Below, piece after piece: positions 1,157 to 35,343 of a stretch of DNA of 35,343 nucleotides. Source of the DNA: Bacillota bacterium (GTDB lineage: Bacteria > Bacillota_I > Bacilli_A > RF39 > UBA660); contig SVAK01000009.1 in assembly GCA_015059445.1 (NCBI GenBank), positions 1-35,343 of the forward strand, written 5' to 3'. The translations under genes were made by a program, and so were the position numbers. Numbering within the stretch: position 1 is the first letter of the stretch; each line of letters opens with the position of its first letter. The notes beneath the pieces were generated by a model. The model was not told where the DNA came from, searched no databases, and saw nothing but the letters and a program-made list of their open reading frames with translations.

Positions 1157-3343
1157 CTAAATTATTTGTTTTTCTTTAATATACTTATAAAACATATTTC
1201 TCAAAGTGATTATATCTTTCCTTAATGTTTCTTCATCTTGTTTCTTTAACCATGCATAAAAATAATTTGAAGTAGCATTATATAATCCAGATAATTTTAC
1301 ATTATTTCTACGTAATACTTGCTCTTTTACTTTTCTCATACTTTTCCAAAAATTGTAATATGGGAATTTTAGCTTTGTCATTATTCCAGAACATTCAATA
1401 ACTACACCTTCTATATCTTTCTTAGACATATCATCCTCATCAGTATTTTCTAAATACCATTTATGAAATTCTCTGACATTATCAAATTCCTTATATATAG
1501 TTTTGCATTCACAATTAATTAGTTTTGCTAATTCTTGCACTTTTTCGTAAGGCTCCTTCTTAAATTCATAATCATTATGTATAATATCGAGCAATACAAG
1601 TTTAGATTCATTATATTGAATGATGTGCGGATCATGTTCTATATCTATTACTTCAAACGTTAATGAAACATCATTTTTTTCTAAAAAATATTCTAATTGT
1701 TGCTTGTTAATATTACTGTTTTCATAGATATTTCTAAACCATTCAGCAAAGTCACCTTTATTAGTTGATTTACTTGCTACAAACAATTCTCCATTAACCC
1801 ATGACATAATACCTAAATAGCCATTTTCTTTTTTATAGCATGTTATCTTATCCTTAAATTTAACAATTAAATGTTCCAACTCTGTGTCTCTTCGTTCATT
1901 TACATTAAAGAATTTTTCATAACCTCTTGCAACAACTTTATTTGTATTTGTATTTATAAATAATCCCCTAGCCTTACAAGTCAATTCATTCCAATTTTTA
2001 TTGTAAAAAGCATTATGAGTAAAATTAAATGAACTTATATTATTATCTAATACTGTTTCTTTAATATCTCTTGAATTTCTTAATTGCTCTATCATTGGTA
2101 TTTCATTAATTATTTTTGTTTTACACTCTTTAACCTCATCATCTACTTCTTGACTGCCATAATTATTATTTTTTATCTTTATCAAAGTAGGAATTTCTTC
2201 TTTATTTAATTGCAATACTTTTAAATAACCTCCAAATTCTACCTTCCCCTCTAAATTATATGATTTTCTATTTACATCATCTATTTCATATGTATTTCTG
2301 TGGCCATGAATTTGCATTACTAAATTAGTCATAGTATTTTCTGTATATATGTTATCTATATCTACGTTATAATCTCCTACACCATTTATAAATTGCTCTG
2401 TTGCAATTAGCTGTAATTCATCTGGAAGATAACTAATTCCGCCATGTGAAATTAAATATGTTATCTTTCCAAATTTAAAATAAGCTATCTGTCCTATTTT
2501 TCTATAAAATGCCCTTAAAGCTTTTTTATCTAAATCTAAAATCTCAACCATAGTTTTCTTTAAAAATGTGTTAGATTTTATGTTTTCAATTTCATCAAGC
2601 GAATAATAATTAATCCACTTTTCATGATTGCCTTCTAAAAATAATACATTTTTACGATTTGATATAGACATTAAAAATTCTAATGTTTCTTTATTTTGTA
2701 GTCCTCTATCTATATAATCCCCACAAAATATATACATTTCATTTTCATTAAATGGATATTTTTCAAAATACTCTTTCAAAGGATCATAACACCCATGGAT
2801 ATCACCAAATACATTTACTCTTTCATAATGATTTAAATCAAGTAGTTTCATACCTACTTCATTCCAAAAATTATTTTTATCTACTTTTACCCAACCGCTT
2901 GTTTTTCCTTGTGTTCTTAATCTTGAATACATTTTATCTATAACATTTTCAGGTACTCGTTTGTAGTCTTCTCTCTGTAAATTTCTTCTTTTGCATTCTT
3001 CTAATGACACATCACTAAAATCTACAAAATATCTTCTATATCTATATCTTTCACATAATTTATTGTATCTGCTAAAATCACTTGATCTACTATGAGTTGC
3101 GTCTATTATTACAAATTCTCCCCTAGACATTCTCTTTTCTAGTAATTCAAATAATAATTGCCATACATAATTATCATTTTTCTGGCTTATTACCCTATGG
3201 TTTTTATCAGCCACAATTATAGGACTTTCCACTAATAGCCTTATTGAATCTGCACTCAATGTATAATTTTCTAGTCCCATTTCTTTAACCCATGTAGATT
3301 TACCACTTGCTGGGCTTCCTCTTAATATAATTAAAGTCCTCAT
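1157..3343 (-). CDS. pnkp: Trifunctional RNA-repair enzyme: 5'-kinase, metallophosphatase, RNA ligase
   Basis: 728 residues with three catalytic modules in the order of bacterial Pnkp. (1) Polynucleotide kinase: P-loop GSPASGKST at 9-17, and SADSIR with D32 and R35 at the positions of the T4 Pnk general base and phosphate-binding arginine. (2) Calcineurin-type phosphoesterase: GDIHGC 180-185, GDYIDRG 208-214, GNHE 238-241, HGG 300-302, HGH 346-348. (3) Nucleotidyltransferase ligase resembling the T4 Rnl1 group: RGLF about 459, EKFFN about 476-480, probable motif I KENG with nucleophile K505, motif III LTFEVID, motif IV EGVVIE, motif V KLKFP. Family knowledge: such enzymes remove 2',3'-cyclic phosphate, phosphorylate the 5'-OH and seal broken RNA such as cleaved tRNA. 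Inference: it counters host anticodon nucleases. It is shorter than typical bacterial Pnkp (about 850 residues), and no Hen1 methyltransferase gene is adjacent. Confidence 0.9.
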   Translation of the reverse strand: MRTLIILRGSPASGKSTWVKEMGLENYTLSADSIRLLVESPIIVADKNHRVISQKNDNYVWQLLFELLEKRMSRGEFVIIDATHSRSSDFSRYNKLCERYRYRRYFVDFSDVSLEECKRRNLQREDYKRVPENVIDKMYSRLRTQGKTSGWVKVDKNNFWNEVGMKLLDLNHYERVNVFGDIHGCYDPLKEYFEKYPFNENEMYIFCGDYIDRGLQNKETLEFLMSISNRKNVLFLEGNHEKWINYYSLDEIENIKSNTFLKKTMVEILDLDKKALRAFYRKIGQIAYFKFGKITYLISHGGISYLPDELQLIATEQFINGVGDYNVDIDNIYTENTMTNLVMQIHGHRNTYEIDDVNRKSYNLEGKVEFGGYLKVLQLNKEEIPTLIKIKNNNYGSQEVDDEVKECKTKIINEIPMIEQLRNSRDIKETVLDNNISSFNFTHNAFYNKNWNELTCKARGLFINTNTNKVVARGYEKFFNVNERRDTELEHLIVKFKDKITCYKKENGYLGIMSWVNGELFVASKSTNKGDFAEWFRNIYENSNINKQQLEYFLEKNDVSLTFEVIDIEHDPHIIQYNESKLVLLDIIHNDYEFKKEPYEKVQELAKLINCECKTIYKEFDNVREFHKWYLENTDEDDMSKKDIEGVVIECSGIMTKLKFPYYNFWKSMRKVKEQVLRRNNVKLSGLYNATSNYFYAWLKKQDEETLRKDIITLRNMFYKYIKEKQII

Positions 3344-10889: not shown

Positions 10890-11333
10890 ATGAGAGAAGA
10901 AATATGGAAAGACATTAAAAATTATGAAGGATTTTACCAAATATCAAATTATGGCAGAGTAAAGTCAGTCGAAAGGATAAGAAAAGGAAAAACAAACCAA
11001 ATTTATTTACAAAAAGAAAGAATATTAAAGCAACATTTAAATAAAAAAACAGGATATTATCAAGTTTATTTAACTAAAAATTCTGTTCCAAAATTATTTC
11101 TTTGCCACAGGTTAGTTGCTAAAGCATTTATAAAAAACTCCAATAACAAAGTGTTTGTTAACCATATTGATGGTAATAAAAAAAATAATATAGCCGACAA
11201 TTTAGAATGGTGCACACATAGTGAAAATATTCAACATGCCTATAATAATAACTTAATTTCTAGGACAAAAAATAGGTTTTATTATTCTCGTCATAAAAAA
11301 GACATAAAATTAATCGAAAAGGAAGTGTTATAA
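10890..11333 (+). CDS. NUMOD4-HNH endonuclease upstream of the integrase
   Basis: 147 residues. NUMOD4 at the N-terminus (EEIWKDIKNYEGFYQISNYGR), then the HNH core: CHRLVAKAFIKN, FVNHIDGNKKNN, NLEWCTHSENIQHAYNN. It lacks the NUMOD1-type C-terminus with the TAGGYKWKY end of the other two NUMOD4 proteins and finishes in a short basic tail, so it is a shorter variant or has lost that module. Its stop overlaps the integrase start (TAATG), tying integrase translation to it. Confidence 0.9.
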   Translation: MREEIWKDIKNYEGFYQISNYGRVKSVERIRKGKTNQIYLQKERILKQHLNKKTGYYQVYLTKNSVPKLFLCHRLVAKAFIKNSNNKVFVNHIDGNKKNNIADNLEWCTHSENIQHAYNNNLISRTKNRFYYSRHKKDIKLIEKEVL

Positions 11334-13306: not shown

Positions 13307-13337
13307 AAAAAAAAGAGATAAGCTTTTGCAACTTATC
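13307..13337 (-). terminator. Terminator of the toxin-antitoxin operon
   Basis: GATAAG (13317-13322) and CTTATC (13332-13337) with a 9-nt loop; on the minus strand the stem is followed by a T-rich run (A-run at about 13307-13315). It overlaps the stop of the membrane-protein gene. Confidence 0.85.
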
Positions 13338-14055
13338 CATTAATTACATTAACATTAAGTATATTTGGATCATTATATACATATATCATAGTAAAGATTA
13401 ATATAGCTAGTGTTACAAACGTAATTATTCCATAAAAAATTATGGCTATTATATTATTAAAATTATCTTTTCTAAATAAACAATTTATAAATACAATAAA
13501 CGTTATTCCCAACCAAACTATTCCAAATATAAACAAAGGTATAAATATTGGACTGATACTATCTATTCCAGTAATACCAGCTGATATAAAACTTACAGAT
13601 GCAATTATTGAAATAACAGTAGCACCAATTCCTTCAAATTTATTTTCTAAACCATTTAATTTCTGATTATTAGTATTCAATTCACTAGAATAATTATCTA
13701 TTCGTTTCGATAAAATATCATTTTTAATTTCAAGCAAATCGTTTTTAATTTTATAATAATTATGTCTTAATCTTTCGAACTTATTTTTATTACTAAATTC
13801 TTCACTATCACAAAATTTAATTATAAATTCAATAAAATCGATATTAACTTTTTCTTTTTTTCTAAACTTATTAAGTTCATCTTCTTGTTTTTCAATAGTA
13901 TTTTGCTTCGATACCACAAACAAATAATTCAAAATTCTTTCAGATTCATTATACCAATGTTCGATGTTTTCATCAATTTTAGTAAATATTAATTCTGTGG
14001 TTTTACTAAGTACACTATCGATATTTTTTTTAGCTTTACTTTTACTAGTTGCCAT
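13333..14055 (-). CDS. Membrane protein, putative toxin partner of the Panacea antitoxin
   Basis: 240 residues. The N-terminal two thirds are charged and helical with coiled-coil character (KQEDELNKFRKKEK, LLEIKNDILSKRIDNYSSEL). The C-terminus has three transmembrane helices (about 148-168, 172-195 and 202-228). Its ATG overlaps the end of the PanA gene by 11 bp, the arrangement of a coupled two-gene toxin-antitoxin operon, and a shared terminator follows. Family knowledge: Panacea-domain antitoxins pair with unrelated toxins, some of them membrane proteins. I do not recognise this toxin family, so the assignment rests on context and topology. Confidence 0.6.
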   Translation of the reverse strand: MATSKSKAKKNIDSVLSKTTELIFTKIDENIEHWYNESERILNYLFVVSKQNTIEKQEDELNKFRKKEKVNIDFIEFIIKFCDSEEFSNKNKFERLRHNYYKIKNDLLEIKNDILSKRIDNYSSELNTNNQKLNGLENKFEGIGATVISIIASVSFISAGITGIDSISPIFIPLFIFGIVWLGITFIVFINCLFRKDNFNNIIAIIFYGIITFVTLAILIFTMIYVYNDPNILNVNVING

Positions 14056-14506
14056 TTTTTAAGAAAACCTCTTTAAACCATTTTTTTGTGTTGTTTTTTG
14101 ATATTACAGTATCGAAATCTATAGGTAATTCATACCAAGGCGAACCTTTCATATGGGTTAATTTTATTAATTGAGTACTAGTTAAATCGCCAAACAAATC
14201 ATAAACATCGTTTATACTATCTACAACATTCGAATTAAATTCACATATTTTTTCACATTCTTGTTCGTAAATTGGAGTATCAGCAAAAAATTTATATTTT
14301 ATATAAACCTCTTTGCATACAGGTCCATATGTCCATGCGTAAAAATCTTCATTATACAATTTATCTTTATCATATGTTGCCATATAGTATGCTTCTATAA
14401 AATATAATAGTTTCTGTAATTTTAATTGTGTAATATCTTTACCAGCATTATTGAATTTGCATATTAATGTTTTAGCTACATCTAAAACATCTACTGTATT
14501 ACTCAT
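14045..14506 (-). CDS. Panacea-domain antitoxin (PanA; SocA/DUF4065 family)
   Basis: 153 residues from the ATG at 14506. The Panacea fold is plain: VLDVAKTLICKFNNAGKDITQLKLQKLLYF, then AYYMATYDKDKLYNEDFYAWTYGPVCKEVY and the late SPWYELP. Family members start close to the chosen ATG. An ATG at 14578 has a strong GGAGG and would add about 24 hydrophobic residues, but the promoter -10 at 14557 lies inside that extension. PanA proteins neutralise varied toxins encoded beside them. Here the operon sits between the lysis genes and the integrase, the usual site of phage cargo genes expressed in lysogens, flanked by terminators and with its own promoter. Confidence 0.85.
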   Translation of the reverse strand: MSNTVDVLDVAKTLICKFNNAGKDITQLKLQKLLYFIEAYYMATYDKDKLYNEDFYAWTYGPVCKEVYIKYKFFADTPIYEQECEKICEFNSNVVDSINDVYDLFGDLTSTQLIKLTHMKGSPWYELPIDFDTVISKNNTKKWFKEVFLKNGN

Positions 14507-14556
14507 ACTATCACTTCCCTTATTATCAATTATAATATACCACAGATTGGCTATGT

Positions 14557-14584
14557 ATTCTATCATTTTTTTTATCATTGTCAA
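14557..14584 (-). promoter_or_regulatory. Promoter of the PanA operon
   Basis: Minus strand TTGACA (14579-14584), 16-bp spacer, TAGAAT (14557-14562). A second TATAAT-like box lies downstream near 14528-14536. Gives the operon its own expression, separate from the late genes. Confidence 0.65.
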
Positions 14585-14642
14585 GTCCTCCTGTAAATAA
14601 TATACGCACCTCATACTGTTAGTTTATGGCGAAATTTGTTAT

Positions 14643-31660: not shown

Positions 31661-32926
31661 TTACATTAACTTTCTATTTGAAATTTGCCATGTATTAGAT
31701 ATTGTATAATCCTCTATGGCATATCTTGCACTATCTATGCTATGGTTATTTTCGTCAGGATACTTACTTTTAAAGTTGCCTAATTTATCTTTTTCATATT
31801 CATACATACTAAATTCTTTTGATGCATTAGGACATCTTTTAGGATCTATTACAATACTTTCTAAATTCTGCAAAAATTTTATTCCATATTCAATACTATC
31901 AGGACCTTTTTTCGCACCTTTTACTCTTAAACCCAAACTTCTTAATTGATCAATACTCTTTGGTTCAGCAGAATCACAGGTTATAAAACTATGCCCTATC
32001 TTTGTTTTTTTTATTTGTTCAGCCAATTCAATATTGCTCATTCCAACCTTATATATTTCGTTAAAAATAAAAATACGTCTTCTCGTCTTATCATACTGTA
32101 ATTGCAAATAGCAATTCGGATCAACCGCATATCCAAAATCATTACCATCAAGAATATTATCATATTTATCAATTTCTTCATTTGTGATTTCTCTTAATGT
32201 TATATTTGTAAATACAGCTCCACCTGTTCCTGTTGCTTCGCCTAAATATTCATTTTTATATGCTAATTCATTTACTTTTTTTAAGTGTTCTGCTTCAAGT
32301 ATTGCCGGCTCTCCCAACCATTCTTTAGGAACATCCAAATATGTACTATGATGAACAACTGTTTTAGGTTTTGGAATTATTATCTCCGCATTAACCCAAT
32401 TATTAACACTTTTAGGTGGATTAAATGAATAAAATACTTTATATATATCTCCACCTCTCATCAATGATTGATTGATGCTTCTTATTTCTTCCATTCCAAA
32501 AAATTCATCTACTTCTTCATACCAAACATATTTACAATATCCTTTTTTTATCTTTATTGATTTAATTTTTTTATAATCTTCTTTATTGTTGGCACTTCTA
32601 AACAATATTTCTTGTCCAGTCGGCTTATAAATTAATTTTAAAGGACTAACTTTCATTTCCCAATAATAATTAACTCCCAATTTTTCTATAGCCCAGATTA
32701 ATTGCGAATAAACCGAATCTGCTAATGTATCTCCTACTTTACGCAATACTACTGCATTAGCAATTTTATCTTTCATCATACCAAGTATTATTTCAATACT
32801 AATAAATGATGATTTAGTAGACATTCTTCCACCTTTTAACCAATAATGAGTATTCAAATCTGATTTTAAATCCTTATGCAACATATAAAAACTTGGTGCA
32901 ATTATTTTACTTAATTGTATTTCCAT
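31661..32926 (-). CDS. terL: Terminase large subunit (PBSX/SPP1 type)
   Basis: 421 residues. ATPase: Walker A variant LKGGRMSTKSSF (about 31-42), Walker B KYVWYEEVDEF, coupling motif YSFNPP. Nuclease: DGNDFGYAVDPNC, FITCDSAEPKS, SIDSARYAIEDY with the acidic metal ligands. Its first 16 bases overlap the 3' end of the HNH gene, and its SD lies inside that gene's GGY codons. Motor and nuclease for DNA packaging. Confidence 0.95.
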   Translation of the reverse strand: MEIQLSKIIAPSFYMLHKDLKSDLNTHYWLKGGRMSTKSSFISIEIILGMMKDKIANAVVLRKVGDTLADSVYSQLIWAIEKLGVNYYWEMKVSPLKLIYKPTGQEILFRSANNKEDYKKIKSIKIKKGYCKYVWYEEVDEFFGMEEIRSINQSLMRGGDIYKVFYSFNPPKSVNNWVNAEIIIPKPKTVVHHSTYLDVPKEWLGEPAILEAEHLKKVNELAYKNEYLGEATGTGGAVFTNITLREITNEEIDKYDNILDGNDFGYAVDPNCYLQLQYDKTRRRIFIFNEIYKVGMSNIELAEQIKKTKIGHSFITCDSAEPKSIDQLRSLGLRVKGAKKGPDSIEYGIKFLQNLESIVIDPKRCPNASKEFSMYEYEKDKLGNFKSKYPDENNHSIDSARYAIEDYTISNTWQISNRKLM

Positions 32927-33456
32927 ATATAACCACCAGCAGTTTTTCTTTCACCTCTACAACAGGCATCTATATGGTTTATTTTTAATTCTGTAGCTGG
33001 CATTTTCACAGAATTCCATTTTTTAATAAAATTACCACGTAAATCATATTGTAAAACACATTTTGCATGTGGATTATCTTCAATTTTTATATTGTGCATA
33101 GGATTTTCTTTTCCACATTTAAAAAGATTATTCGTATTGAATAATCCATTTTTTATTGCATGTCGAACATTATAAGATGCTGTACACCATTCCAAATTAT
33201 CGACACAATTATTTAATTTATTTCCATCTTTATGATTTACTTGAGGCAGATTGTCAGGATTTGGTATAAAAGCTTCTGCTACTAATCTATGATTTTTTTT
33301 GCTTTTACACTTGCCATTTTTCCATAAAGTTATATAATAATACCCATTTTTTCCTATTCTTGGTTTTCTAATAATATTATTATATAGGCTTTTAACGTTT
33401 CCTAAATTAGATATTTCGTAATTTTCATAACCTTCAATGCTTTTCCATATTTCCAT
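32911..33456 (-). CDS. NUMOD4-HNH endonuclease between the terminase genes
   Basis: 181 residues. NUMOD4 (MEIWKSIEGYENYEISNLG), HNH core (HRLVAEAFIPNPDNLPQVNHKDGNKLNN, NLEWCTASYN), and NUMOD1-type C-terminus (VKMPATELKINHIDACCRGE, RKTAGGYIWKYN). Same C-terminal motif as the HNH protein at 1-657. It separates terS from terL and overlaps the terL start, an insertion point often used by phage homing endonucleases. Confidence 0.93.
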   Translation of the reverse strand: MEIWKSIEGYENYEISNLGNVKSLYNNIIRKPRIGKNGYYYITLWKNGKCKSKKNHRLVAEAFIPNPDNLPQVNHKDGNKLNNCVDNLEWCTASYNVRHAIKNGLFNTNNLFKCGKENPMHNIKIEDNPHAKCVLQYDLRGNFIKKWNSVKMPATELKINHIDACCRGERKTAGGYIWKYN

Positions 33457-33776: not shown

Positions 33777-34175
33777 TCACTTCTTTCTTAAGTATCTTTC
33801 CTTTATCAATAAATTGCCATTTCTAGCCCTGTCAGAACAATGTTCTCTAGCAAATTGATTAAGTATACTATCAATTGCTTTTAACTGTCTTTCGATAGGC
33901 ATATAGCCTTGTATGTTTATCTCTTTTAGAATTGCATTTATGTATTCGTACATATCTAAATCTCTTGATTCGATAATATGTAAGAATTCATGAGCATTTC
34001 TAGTTAAGATAGCACCATTATTGATTTCTAATTTTCCATTATGGCATCTCTTTTTAATGTGATGAAATGTAAAAGAATTATCTCGCTTTACTTCGTATCC
34101 CATCCAGCATTGGTTTGTCATATTCCATTTAATTATCATTAGATTAGTTATACTTTTCATAATTATTTCTTTCAT
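33777..34175 (-). CDS. HNH endonuclease of the packaging region
   Basis: 132 residues. Core FTFHHIKKRCHNGKLEINNGAILTRNAHEFLHIIE, an HNH fold without NUMOD modules, upstream of terS as in many cos-type phages where such HNH proteins assist cos cleavage. The ATG at 34175 abuts the encoded CCA of the tRNA at 34176, leaving no room for an SD on a processed RNA; a second ATG at 34160 is possible. Confidence 0.85.
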   Translation of the reverse strand: MKEIIMKSITNLMIIKWNMTNQCWMGYEVKRDNSFTFHHIKKRCHNGKLEINNGAILTRNAHEFLHIIESRDLDMYEYINAILKEINIQGYMPIERQLKAIDSILNQFAREHCSDRARNGNLLIKERYLRKK

Positions 34176-34251
34176 TGGTTGGCAAGGTAGGACTTGAACC
34201 CACGACCGCTGAGATATAAGCTCAGAACTCTAACCACTGAGTTACTTGCCA
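34176..34251 (-). tRNA. tRNA-Ile, anticodon UAU, CCA encoded
   Basis: A 76-nt cloverleaf on the minus strand: acceptor TGGCAAG/CTTGCCA, T8-A9, D-stem ACTC/GAGT with 8-nt loop, anticodon stem CTGAG/CTCAG with loop CTTATAT (anticodon TAT), variable CGGTC, T-stem GTGGG/CCTAC with loop TTCAAGT, discriminator A and CCA. Reads AUA directly, a codon heavily used in this AT-rich genome. Most bacteria read AUA with a lysidine-modified CAU tRNA; this one would not need that modification. Lies between the hairpin-repeat region and the packaging HNH gene. Confidence 0.93.
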
Positions 34252-34759: not shown

Positions 34760-35197
34760 TCATAGTGTGTCATCTTTATTAAAAAATCTTAATTTGTGAT
34801 ATTTCTTATATATTCTTTGGCATTGCTCTTTTGAATAATGAACTAATGTTGCTATTTCTCGCCAAGTATATTTTTTTAAACAAATATCTTTGTAATAAAC
34901 AATTAATTGTTCTACTTTATCGTATTTCTTTAATATCTTAAGTTCTTTTTCTATCCAGTCCATCAAATTTAACTTACGACTTTGCTTTAATTGTATTTTT
35001 TCATCTAATTGCTTTATCTCTTTAATTTCAACATATTCTAGTAGCTTATCAACTCGTTTGCCACCATCTACGATCATTTTATCTGTACTAACTGCTTGAA
35101 TGTCTACACTAGCTTCTAGTACCTCTTTTTCTTTTAATAATAATTCTATTTCATTATCTAATCTTTCTACTTCACAATTAGCGTCTTTTAAAGTCAC
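34760..35197 (-). CDS. ArpU/RinA-like late transcription regulator (DUF1492-type)
   Basis: 145 residues from a GTG at 35197, nine bases after GGAG; longer readings enter the HNH gene. N-terminal coiled coil (ANCEVERLDNEIELLLKEKEVL), a middle helical part (QLKQSRKLNLMDWIEKELKILKKYDKVEQLIVYYKDI) and a C-terminal sigma-70 region-4-like helix-turn-helix (YTWREIATLVHYSKEQCQRIYKKYHK). This layout is that of DUF1492/ArpU/RinA proteins, which switch on late genes in Bacillota phages. Its place just before the terminase block supports that. Confidence 0.82.
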   Translation of the reverse strand: MTLKDANCEVERLDNEIELLLKEKEVLEASVDIQAVSTDKMIVDGGKRVDKLLEYVEIKEIKQLDEKIQLKQSRKLNLMDWIEKELKILKKYDKVEQLIVYYKDICLKKYTWREIATLVHYSKEQCQRIYKKYHKLRFFNKDDTL

Positions 35198-35343
35198 TCT
35201 TTTCAACTCCTTTATATTTCCATTTATAACCTCCTGCGGTTTTTCTTTTTCCTTTGCATACATCAACTATATGACCATTATTTATATTTAATGTTTTTGA
35301 GGCTTTTGATATACTTTCCCACTCATCAATTTTTTTATCATTT
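35178..35343 (-). CDS. C-terminal part of the NUMOD4-HNH gene (continues at window start)
   Basis: On the circular map this is the end of the gene at 1-657: bases 35217-35343 repeat 1-127, and 35178-35216 add the last 12 codons (YKGVEKSDFKRR) and TAA. The final 20 bases overlap the GTG start of the late regulator. Confidence 0.9.
   Translation of the reverse strand, partial: NDKKIDEWESISKASKTLNINNGHIVDVCKGKRKTAGGYKWKYKGVEKSDFKRR
35217..35343. repeat. Terminal direct repeat, right copy (assembly overlap)
   Basis: Exact copy of bases 1-127; see the left copy. Removing it gives a circular unit of about 35,216 bp. Confidence 0.93.

What the first reader, a model, noticed from the sequence alone, without database searches (positions are those of the whole stretch)
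1157..3343. Phage-borne all-in-one RNA end-healing and sealing enzyme
A single 728-aa protein carries intact motifs of a 5'-kinase, a metallophosphatase and an RNA ligase with T4 Rnl1-like features. T4 needs two genes for this (pnk and rnl1), and its phosphatase is of another superfamily. A compact Pnkp-order fusion in a 35-kb temperate siphophage, without Hen1, is unusual and suggests defence against host RNA-cleaving systems such as anticodon nucleases.
Basis: partly seen in the sequence, partly recalled or inferred. Interest (0 to 1): 0.85.

Follow-up and report, generated by a model that had tools for sequence, protein, structure and literature searches.

The report
Phage three-in-one RNA repair enzyme
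A small bacterial virus carries one protein that looks able to tidy both ends of a broken RNA and glue them together; its glue domain is closer to the tRNA-splicing ligase of fungi than to the classic T4 phage ligase, so a widespread but apparently uncharacterised phage enzyme family becomes directly testable.

Summary
In detail: a 728-aa ORF at 1157-3343 (minus strand) has an intact P-loop RNA kinase (1-166), binuclear metallophosphatase (162-401) and ATP-dependent RNA ligase (about 413-724). It lies in a complete 35.2-kb circular temperate phage genome. It is not unique: it matches phrog_8238 'RNA ligase' over its whole length, and 113 phage records plus at least 80 viral metagenome loci carry relatives.

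The healing half is bacterial-Pnkp-like. The ligase is neither the Pnkp ligase nor, most closely, T4 Rnl1. By profile, fold, tree and active-site signature it is nearest to fungal tRNA ligase Trl1, including Trl1's C-terminal helical subdomain. The four Trl1 residues that hold a sulfate beside the active site correspond to N507, H573, K667 and R670, conserved in 91-92 of 92 relatives; T4-type ligases lack them.

Most likely it converts 2',3'-cyclic-phosphate/5'-OH breaks to 3'-OH/5'-phosphate and seals them, without Hen1, to rescue RNA cut by host ribotoxins. The target nuclease is unknown: the co-binned genome has no PrrC/RloC-type match, only a MazF-type toxin. Whether sealing needs a 2'-phosphate, as in fungi, is the key open question.

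The parts
1157..3343 (-). 728-aa trifunctional RNA repair enzyme gene (whole ORF)
   Evidence: full-length match to phrog_8238 E=1e-216; AF2 pLDDT 91.3
2846..3343 (-). 5'-OH polynucleotide kinase domain, residues 1-166; P-loop GSPASGKST with K15/S16, D32, R35
   Evidence: AAA_33; CthPnkp kinase 4gp7 E=1.6e-12, Z 19.1 over 152 residues
2141..2860 (-). binuclear metallophosphatase domain, residues 162-401; D181, H183, D209, R213, N239, H240, H300, H348
   Evidence: Metallophos; CthPnkp phosphatase 4j6o Z 23.7 over 224 residues; all eight residues 92/92
1331..2107 (-). RNA ligase nucleotidyltransferase core, about residues 413-671; R459, K505 (motif I KENG), E564, H573, E645, K657, K659
   Evidence: RNA_lig_T4_1 E=1.5e-39; Trl1 and T4 Rnl1 folds; invariance
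1172..1363 (-). C-terminal helical subdomain, about residues 661-724, superposing on fungal Trl1 LIG-C; K667 and R670 = CtTrl1 R334 and R337
   Evidence: profile alignment to Trl1 extends through LIG-C; superposition to residue 724 for Trl1 but only about 671 for T4 Rnl1

Best explanation
It is a self-contained RNA end-healing and sealing enzyme of temperate and virulent phages of Firmicutes-type hosts. The metallophosphatase opens and removes the 2',3'-cyclic phosphate left by metal-independent RNases, the kinase phosphorylates the 5'-OH, and a Trl1/Rnl1-superfamily ligase, adenylated on K505, joins the ends. Because the ligase is of the self-sufficient Rnl1/Trl1 type and not the Hen1-activated Pnkp type, no partner is needed. 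The phage most likely uses it to restore tRNAs or other RNAs cut by host ribotoxins during infection. Shown: the ORF, the three folds, intact and conserved catalytic residues, and the closest relatives of each part. Inferred from named families: the three reactions and their order. Inferred only by analogy with T4: the counter-defence role and tRNA as substrate.
For: Domains and catalytic residues; AF2 models with pLDDT 91.3 and 93.7; separate best relatives: CthPnkp kinase and phosphatase, fungal Trl1 ligase; reciprocal search with Candida glabrata Trl1 against 50,697 phage records finds 89, the listed hits falling on this enzyme; tree branch family+Trl1 100/97; no Hen1 or RtcB match in the genome bin; stand-alone ligases of this superfamily in other phages sit near separate kinase, phosphoesterase or tRNA genes. 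The T4 paradigm of healing and sealing PrrC-cut tRNA-Lys is reviewed in PMC3400036.
Against: No activity has been measured. No anticodon nuclease of PrrC/RloC type was found in the co-binned genome, and binning does not prove that this is the host. No conserved tRNA-gene linkage near the gene in close relatives: 1 of 11 loci. One relative in the same genus lies among apparently chromosomal genes, so the role is not purely viral.
Confidence: 0.82

Rival explanations
1. Fungal-style sealing: the phosphatase domain opens the cyclic phosphate to a 2'-phosphate/3'-OH end and the Trl1-like ligase recognises that 2'-phosphate through N507, H573, K667 and R670, leaving a 2'-phosphate at the junction for a 2'-phosphotransferase (Tpt1/KptA) or another phosphatase to remove.
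For: CtTrl1 binds a sulfate, a surrogate for a substrate phosphate, with N150, H227, R334 and R337 (PMC6592678); the equivalents here are N507, H573, K667 and R670, conserved 92, 92, 92 and 91 of 92. T4-type ligases have D at the first position, no His at the second, His at the third and K/L/V/I at the fourth; VCM-type ligases have N, H, K, M. Yeast and plant ligases typically depend on a 2'-phosphate (PMC3400036). A 394-kb phage with the enzyme also carries KptA.
Against: The phosphatase keeps the histidine (H183) that aligns with CthPnkp H189; from my own knowledge of the CthPnkp literature, H189 is needed for removing the 2'-phosphate and its change to Asp is what yields 2'-phosphate ends. 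KptA is absent from the genome bin, from 29 of 31 records or genomes with the enzyme, and from the control genome of B. subtilis, host of SPbeta-like carriers. The site might hold any substrate phosphate.
Confidence: 0.25
2. The enzyme acts mainly on RNAs other than defence-cut tRNAs: general repair of mRNA or rRNA cut by stress RNases such as MazF, or processing of phage transcripts.
For: The genome bin has a MazF-type toxin but no AAA_13 PrrC/RloC match; a same-genus genome carries a full-length relative between apparently chromosomal genes, and cellular Pnkp-Hen1 is described as a generic repair system (PMC4411300).
Against: Most of the carriers found are phages, as expected for counter-defence; only 4 of 296 genomes of the class have a full-length copy. 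Restoring a particular mRNA after MazF cleavage is chemically possible but inefficient (inference).
Confidence: 0.3
3. The metallophosphatase half serves another purpose, such as protein dephosphorylation (NinI-like) or hydrolysis of Np4A or Np4-RNA caps (ApaH-like), and is only fused to a kinase-ligase.
For: Short-range similarity to PP1/PP2A, lambda phosphatase and ApaH.
Against: CthPnkp phosphatase 4j6o is the best whole-domain structural match (Z 23.7 over 224 residues) and matches along profile positions 16-240, whereas the protein phosphatases match about 70-85 residues by sequence; kinase-phosphatase pairing has the same order as in Pnkp.
Confidence: 0.06

Closest known systems
phrog_8238 'RNA ligase' family of Firmicutes phages (e.g. 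Bacillus phage Goe11 QMV48848.1, Staphylococcus phage Terranova AXY84053.1)
   Same: Full-length homology, same three domains and catalytic residues.
   Different: Listed carriers in the annotated phage collection are phages of about 85-155 kb; this one is a closed 35.2-kb temperate phage from an uncultured host. Family members are annotated only as 'RNA ligase', 'polynucleotide kinase', 'phosphatase' or hypothetical; I found no biochemical study in the library.
[quoted passage not shown] C. thermocellum Pnkp)
   Same: Kinase then binuclear metallophosphatase then ligase; closest solved kinase and phosphatase domains.
   Different: Ligase domain is of another type (no significant profile match to a Pnkp ligase); no Hen1; 728 against about 850 aa.
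Fungal tRNA ligase Trl1 (LIG-KIN-CPD)
   Same: Ligase fold including the LIG-C subdomain, KxNG motif I, H227/R334/R337-type phosphate site.
   Different: Domain order is different; 3'-end healing by a metallophosphatase and not a 2H phosphodiesterase; kinase is Pnkp-type.
T4 Pnkp plus T4 Rnl1
   Same: Same overall chemistry and probable counter-defence purpose; ligase in the same superfamily (Z 23.4-23.9).
   Different: Two genes in T4; phosphatase of the aspartate-based DxDxT family; Rnl1 has KEDG, no His at the H573 position and a different C-terminal region.
Stand-alone VCM-type phage RNA ligases (Otagovirus and others)
   Same: KxNG motif I and DPHI motif, in neighbourhoods with a calcineurin-like phosphoesterase.
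   Different: Single-domain, about 300 aa; Met where R670 lies; separate clade (100/100).

Membership tests
phrog_8238 phage trifunctional RNA ligase | Full-length profile match with all three domains | tested here: met
   E=1.2e-216, residues 1-724 to profile 1-735 of 737
Bacterial Pnkp (Pnkp-Hen1 system) | N-terminal RNA kinase followed by binuclear metallophosphatase of Pnkp type | tested here: met
   TIGR04075 positions 9-324; 4gp7 and 4j6o by profile and fold
Bacterial Pnkp (Pnkp-Hen1 system) | Pnkp-type C-terminal ligase domain; full TIGR04075 score | tested here: not met
   73 bits against a cut-off of 750, match ends at profile position 324 of 851; ligase profile gives only a 4-bit, partial match to the ligase part of a true Pnkp
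Bacterial Pnkp (Pnkp-Hen1 system) | Hen1 methyltransferase partner in the operon | tested here: not met
   no Hen1_L match in window or genome bin, 95% complete
Fungal Trl1 tRNA ligase | Rnl1-superfamily ligase with Trl1-specific LIG-C subdomain | tested here: met
   alignment through LIG-C; Z 28.1, 306 residues, model 15-331 of the ligase construct
Fungal Trl1 tRNA ligase | Domain order ligase-kinase-2H cyclic phosphodiesterase | tested here: not met
   order is kinase-metallophosphatase-ligase
Fungal Trl1 tRNA ligase | 2'-phosphate-dependent sealing | not testable with these tools
   putative phosphate-site residues conserved, activity unknown
T4 Rnl1 subfamily | Nucleotidyltransferase motifs of the Rnl1 superfamily (PF09511) | tested here: met
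   RNA_lig_T4_1 1.5e-39
T4 Rnl1 subfamily | T4-type signature (KxDG, no His at the H573 position) and tree placement with T4 Rnl1 | tested here: not met
   N507 and H573 in 92/92 relatives; T4-type ligases form a separate clade, 100/98
T4 Rnl1 subfamily | T4 Rnl1 C-terminal helical domain | tested here: inconclusive
   superposition on T4 Rnl1 reaches model residue about 671-688 only
Phage counter-defence RNA repair (T4 Pnkp/Rnl1 type) | Rescues phage growth on a host with an anticodon nuclease | not testable with these tools
   needs infection assays; no AAA_13 (PrrC/RloC) match in the genome bin

The most novel reading that the evidence does not exclude
The enzyme family is a prokaryotic tRNA ligase of the fungal mechanism: its sealing domain senses a 2'-phosphate with the same four-residue pocket as Trl1, and the fungal tRNA-splicing ligase and these phage repair enzymes share an ancestor to the exclusion of T4 Rnl1, possibly by transfer of a phage-type repair ligase into early fungi.
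Probability: 0.25. Interest if true: 0.75.

Novelty: new variant of a known kind. Interest (0 to 1): 0.5.

Why it matters
A single-chain enzyme that could heal and seal broken RNA, without a partner, in phages of laboratory bacteria (B. subtilis SPbeta-like phages, staphylococcal phages) makes phage RNA repair outside T4 testable. Its Trl1-type ligase with the LIG-C subdomain, which was reported in 2019 as unrelated to any other solved structure of its superfamily (PMC6592678), gives a prokaryotic comparison for how fungal tRNA ligase arose and for what the phosphate site does. It also shows that Pnkp-type healing domains have been combined with at least two different ligase types.

Tried and rejected
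(1) Apparent insertion in the gene in L005 and L006 (matches spanning 3.1 kb): it is a second, NinI-like metallophosphatase gene downstream, not an intron; Rfam found no intron. (2) That the enzyme is unique to this phage: rejected. (3) Hen1, RtcB, KptA and PrrC/RloC in the genome bin: none found. (4) KptA linkage: 2 of 31 carriers, one of them on a 283-kb host contig, so no general link. (5) tRNA clusters next to the gene: one of 11 close relatives. (6) Conserved neighbours among relatives: none consistent. (7) PADLOC: no defence-family match for the enzyme. (8) Burroughs and Aravind 2016 and the CthPnkp reprogramming paper are not held; a prior description of the three-domain fusion there cannot be excluded. 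(10) Whether Trl1 branches inside or beside the phage family: unresolved (AU p 0.33); placing Trl1 with T4-type or VCM-type ligases is disfavoured only mildly (p about 0.03).

Full report
WHAT IS THERE. The ORF is real and lies on the minus strand, 3343 to 1157, ATG to stop, 728 aa; the plus strand of the interval is closed by many stops. A strong ribosome-binding site (AAGGAG) precedes it. The window is a complete phage: it ends in a 127-bp overlap typical of a closed assembly, and the same genome, circularly permuted, is in IMG/VR as a 35,339-bp contig. It carries a large serine integrase, phage-type repressors, DnaD-like helicase loader, SSB, NinB-like protein and large terminase. The enzyme sits at the end of the early/replication gene block, before the late regulator at 34760-35266 (a positional inference). 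The window is contig 13 of a 1.02-Mb genome bin; that bin may or may not be the host.

DOMAINS. Pfam gives AAA_33, Metallophos and RNA_lig_T4_1, each above its curated cut-off. In 92 full-length sequences of the family the following are identical: K15, D32, R35 in the kinase; D181, H183, D209, R213, N239, H240, H300, H348 in the phosphatase; R459, K505, E564, E645, K657, K659 in the ligase. AlphaFold2 with a 59-sequence alignment gives mean pLDDT 91.3; the ligase alone gives 93.7 with pTM 0.90.

CLOSEST SOLVED RELATIVES. Kinase profile: C. thermocellum Pnkp kinase 4gp7, E=1.6e-12, then T4 Pnk; fold Z 19.1 over 152 residues. Phosphatase: many short matches to protein phosphatases, but CthPnkp phosphatase 4j6o matches along the whole domain and is the top structural match for that domain, Z 23.7 over 224 residues. 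Ligase: fungal Trl1 structures come first, Candida glabrata 9qw7 E=3.8e-34 and Chaetomium 6n0v E=1.7e-24, against T4 Rnl1 2c5u E=1.2e-16. By fold, Trl1 gives Z 28.1 over 306 residues and T4 Rnl1 about 23.9 over 244-252. The alignment to Trl1 runs through LIG-C to model residue 724, while that to T4 Rnl1 stops at about 671 in the whole model. A canonical Pnkp from the same class, with a Hen1-like gene directly upstream (my reading of its N-terminal sequence), is matched by the kinase and phosphatase profiles (2e-14, 6e-20) but hardly by the ligase profile. So the protein is a chimera: Pnkp-type healing, Trl1/Rnl1-type sealing.

THE LIGASE SUBTYPE. In C. thermophilum Trl1, R334 and R337 of the helical LIG-C subdomain, H227 and N150 hold a sulfate taken as a surrogate for a substrate phosphate; LIG-C was reported as unrelated to other structures of the superfamily (PMC6592678). 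Counting along the profile alignment, with R99, E149, R305 and K325 of the paper as check points, these residues align with K667, R670, H573 and N507. They are conserved 92, 91, 92 and 92 times in 92; the more distant Lactobacillus phage Dionysus, which was outside that set, has KYDG. Eight T4-type ligases have KxDG, no His at the H573 position (NRIV or similar) and His at the K667 position; four VCM-type ligases have KxNG and DPHI, K at 667 but Met at 670. A tree of 41 ligase domains puts this family and Trl1 on one side of a branch with 100/97 support and the T4-type on another with 100/98. Tests that move Trl1 to the T4-type or VCM-type give p about 0.03, and whether Trl1 is inside or beside the family is open (p 0.33). 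Only two fungal sequences were available, on a long branch. The reverse search agrees: the C. glabrata ligase domain, run against 50,697 phage records, hits 89, and nearly all belong to host groups that carry this family, with the listed hits at its loci; T4-like phages, of which the collection holds more than a thousand, do not appear among the listed genera.

DISTRIBUTION. 113 annotated phage records cover at least 80% of the protein, from SPbeta-like Bacillus phages, staphylococcal and Brochothrix phages, Fusobacterium phages and Lactobacillus phages; annotations are 'RNA ligase', 'polynucleotide kinase', 'phosphatase' or hypothetical. The smallest listed full-length record is 85.8 kb. In 296 genomes of the same class only four have a full-length match; one, in the same genus, is surrounded by transporter, two-component and flavin-reductase genes and looks chromosomal, with the same ligase signature.

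MECHANISM. From established family knowledge: metal-independent RNases leave 2',3'-cyclic phosphate and 5'-OH ends; T4 heals these with Pnkp and seals with Rnl1 to restore tRNA-Lys cut by PrrC (PMC3400036). Bacterial Pnkp does the healing with the same two domain types, but its ligase is activated by Hen1 (PMC4411300). Replacing that ligase by a self-sufficient type explains why no Hen1 is found. The expected path is cyclic phosphate removal, 5'-phosphorylation, AMP transfer from K505 to the 5'-phosphate, and sealing. The genome bin has no RtcB or Hen1 match, so the phage brings an activity that this cell may lack.

THE OPEN POINT. Yeast and plant ligases typically depend on a 2'-phosphate and need Tpt1 to erase it (PMC3400036). 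The phage family keeps the putative phosphate pocket, which argues for such dependence. Against it, the phosphatase keeps H183, which aligns with CthPnkp H189; from my knowledge of that literature (paper not held), wild-type CthPnkp yields ends sealed by T4 Rnl1, and H189D is what yields 2'-phosphate ends that yeast ligase seals. Tpt1/KptA is absent from the bin, from 29 of 31 carriers (some of them fragments), and from the B. subtilis control. A protein that couples an H189-type phosphatase with a Trl1-type ligase is therefore a real puzzle that one ligation assay would settle.

DEFENCE ROLE. The bin has no AAA_13 (PrrC/RloC) match and one MazF-type toxin; neither shows what the phage meets. 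The phage also carries a tRNA-Ile with anticodon TAT; AUA makes up 47% of its isoleucine codons, while the bin shows tRNA-Ile(GAT) and CAT-anticodon tRNAs but no other TAT tRNA among those scanned. That fits codon supply as well as replacement of cut tRNAs. The counter-anticodon-nuclease reading is plausible by analogy, no more.

VERDICT. It is a member of an annotated but apparently uncharacterised phage enzyme family, with a ligase domain whose kinship with fungal tRNA ligase I did not find described in the papers I could search.

Noticed in passing
window 13333-14614 (-): Overlapping gene pair: a Panacea/SocA-like antitoxin-domain protein (14045-14614, PF13274 2e-16) and a 240-aa protein with two apparent C-terminal membrane helices (13333-14055), the arrangement of a Panacea toxin-antitoxin pair.
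   Followed up: partly
window 34176-34251 (-): tRNA-Ile with anticodon TAT, which can read AUA without lysidine; AUA is 47% of phage isoleucine codons. It ends directly against an HNH-like ORF (33777-34175).
   Followed up: partly
L140 8907-11090 (same-genus genome G276): Full-length relative of the repair enzyme among apparently chromosomal genes (ABC transporter, two-component system, flavin reductase), so the gene is not purely viral.
   Followed up: partly
L005 10855-11643 and L006 10194-11006: A second, separate NinI-like metallophosphatase gene just downstream of the repair enzyme in two close relatives.
   Followed up: no
L137 (394-kb viral contig that also holds L063): A KptA/Tpt1 2'-phosphotransferase (PF01885, 1.3e-47) in the same giant-phage genome as a relative of the repair enzyme.
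   Followed up: no
L003 11124-11428: Cluster of four tRNA genes (Thr, Trp, Gly, Pro) about 6 kb downstream of a 76%-identical relative.
   Followed up: no
window 10890-11333 (+) and 32911-33456 (-): Two NUMOD4/HNH-type putative homing endonucleases, one beside the integrase and one beside the terminase (for the first; similarity to the same loci for the second).
   Followed up: no
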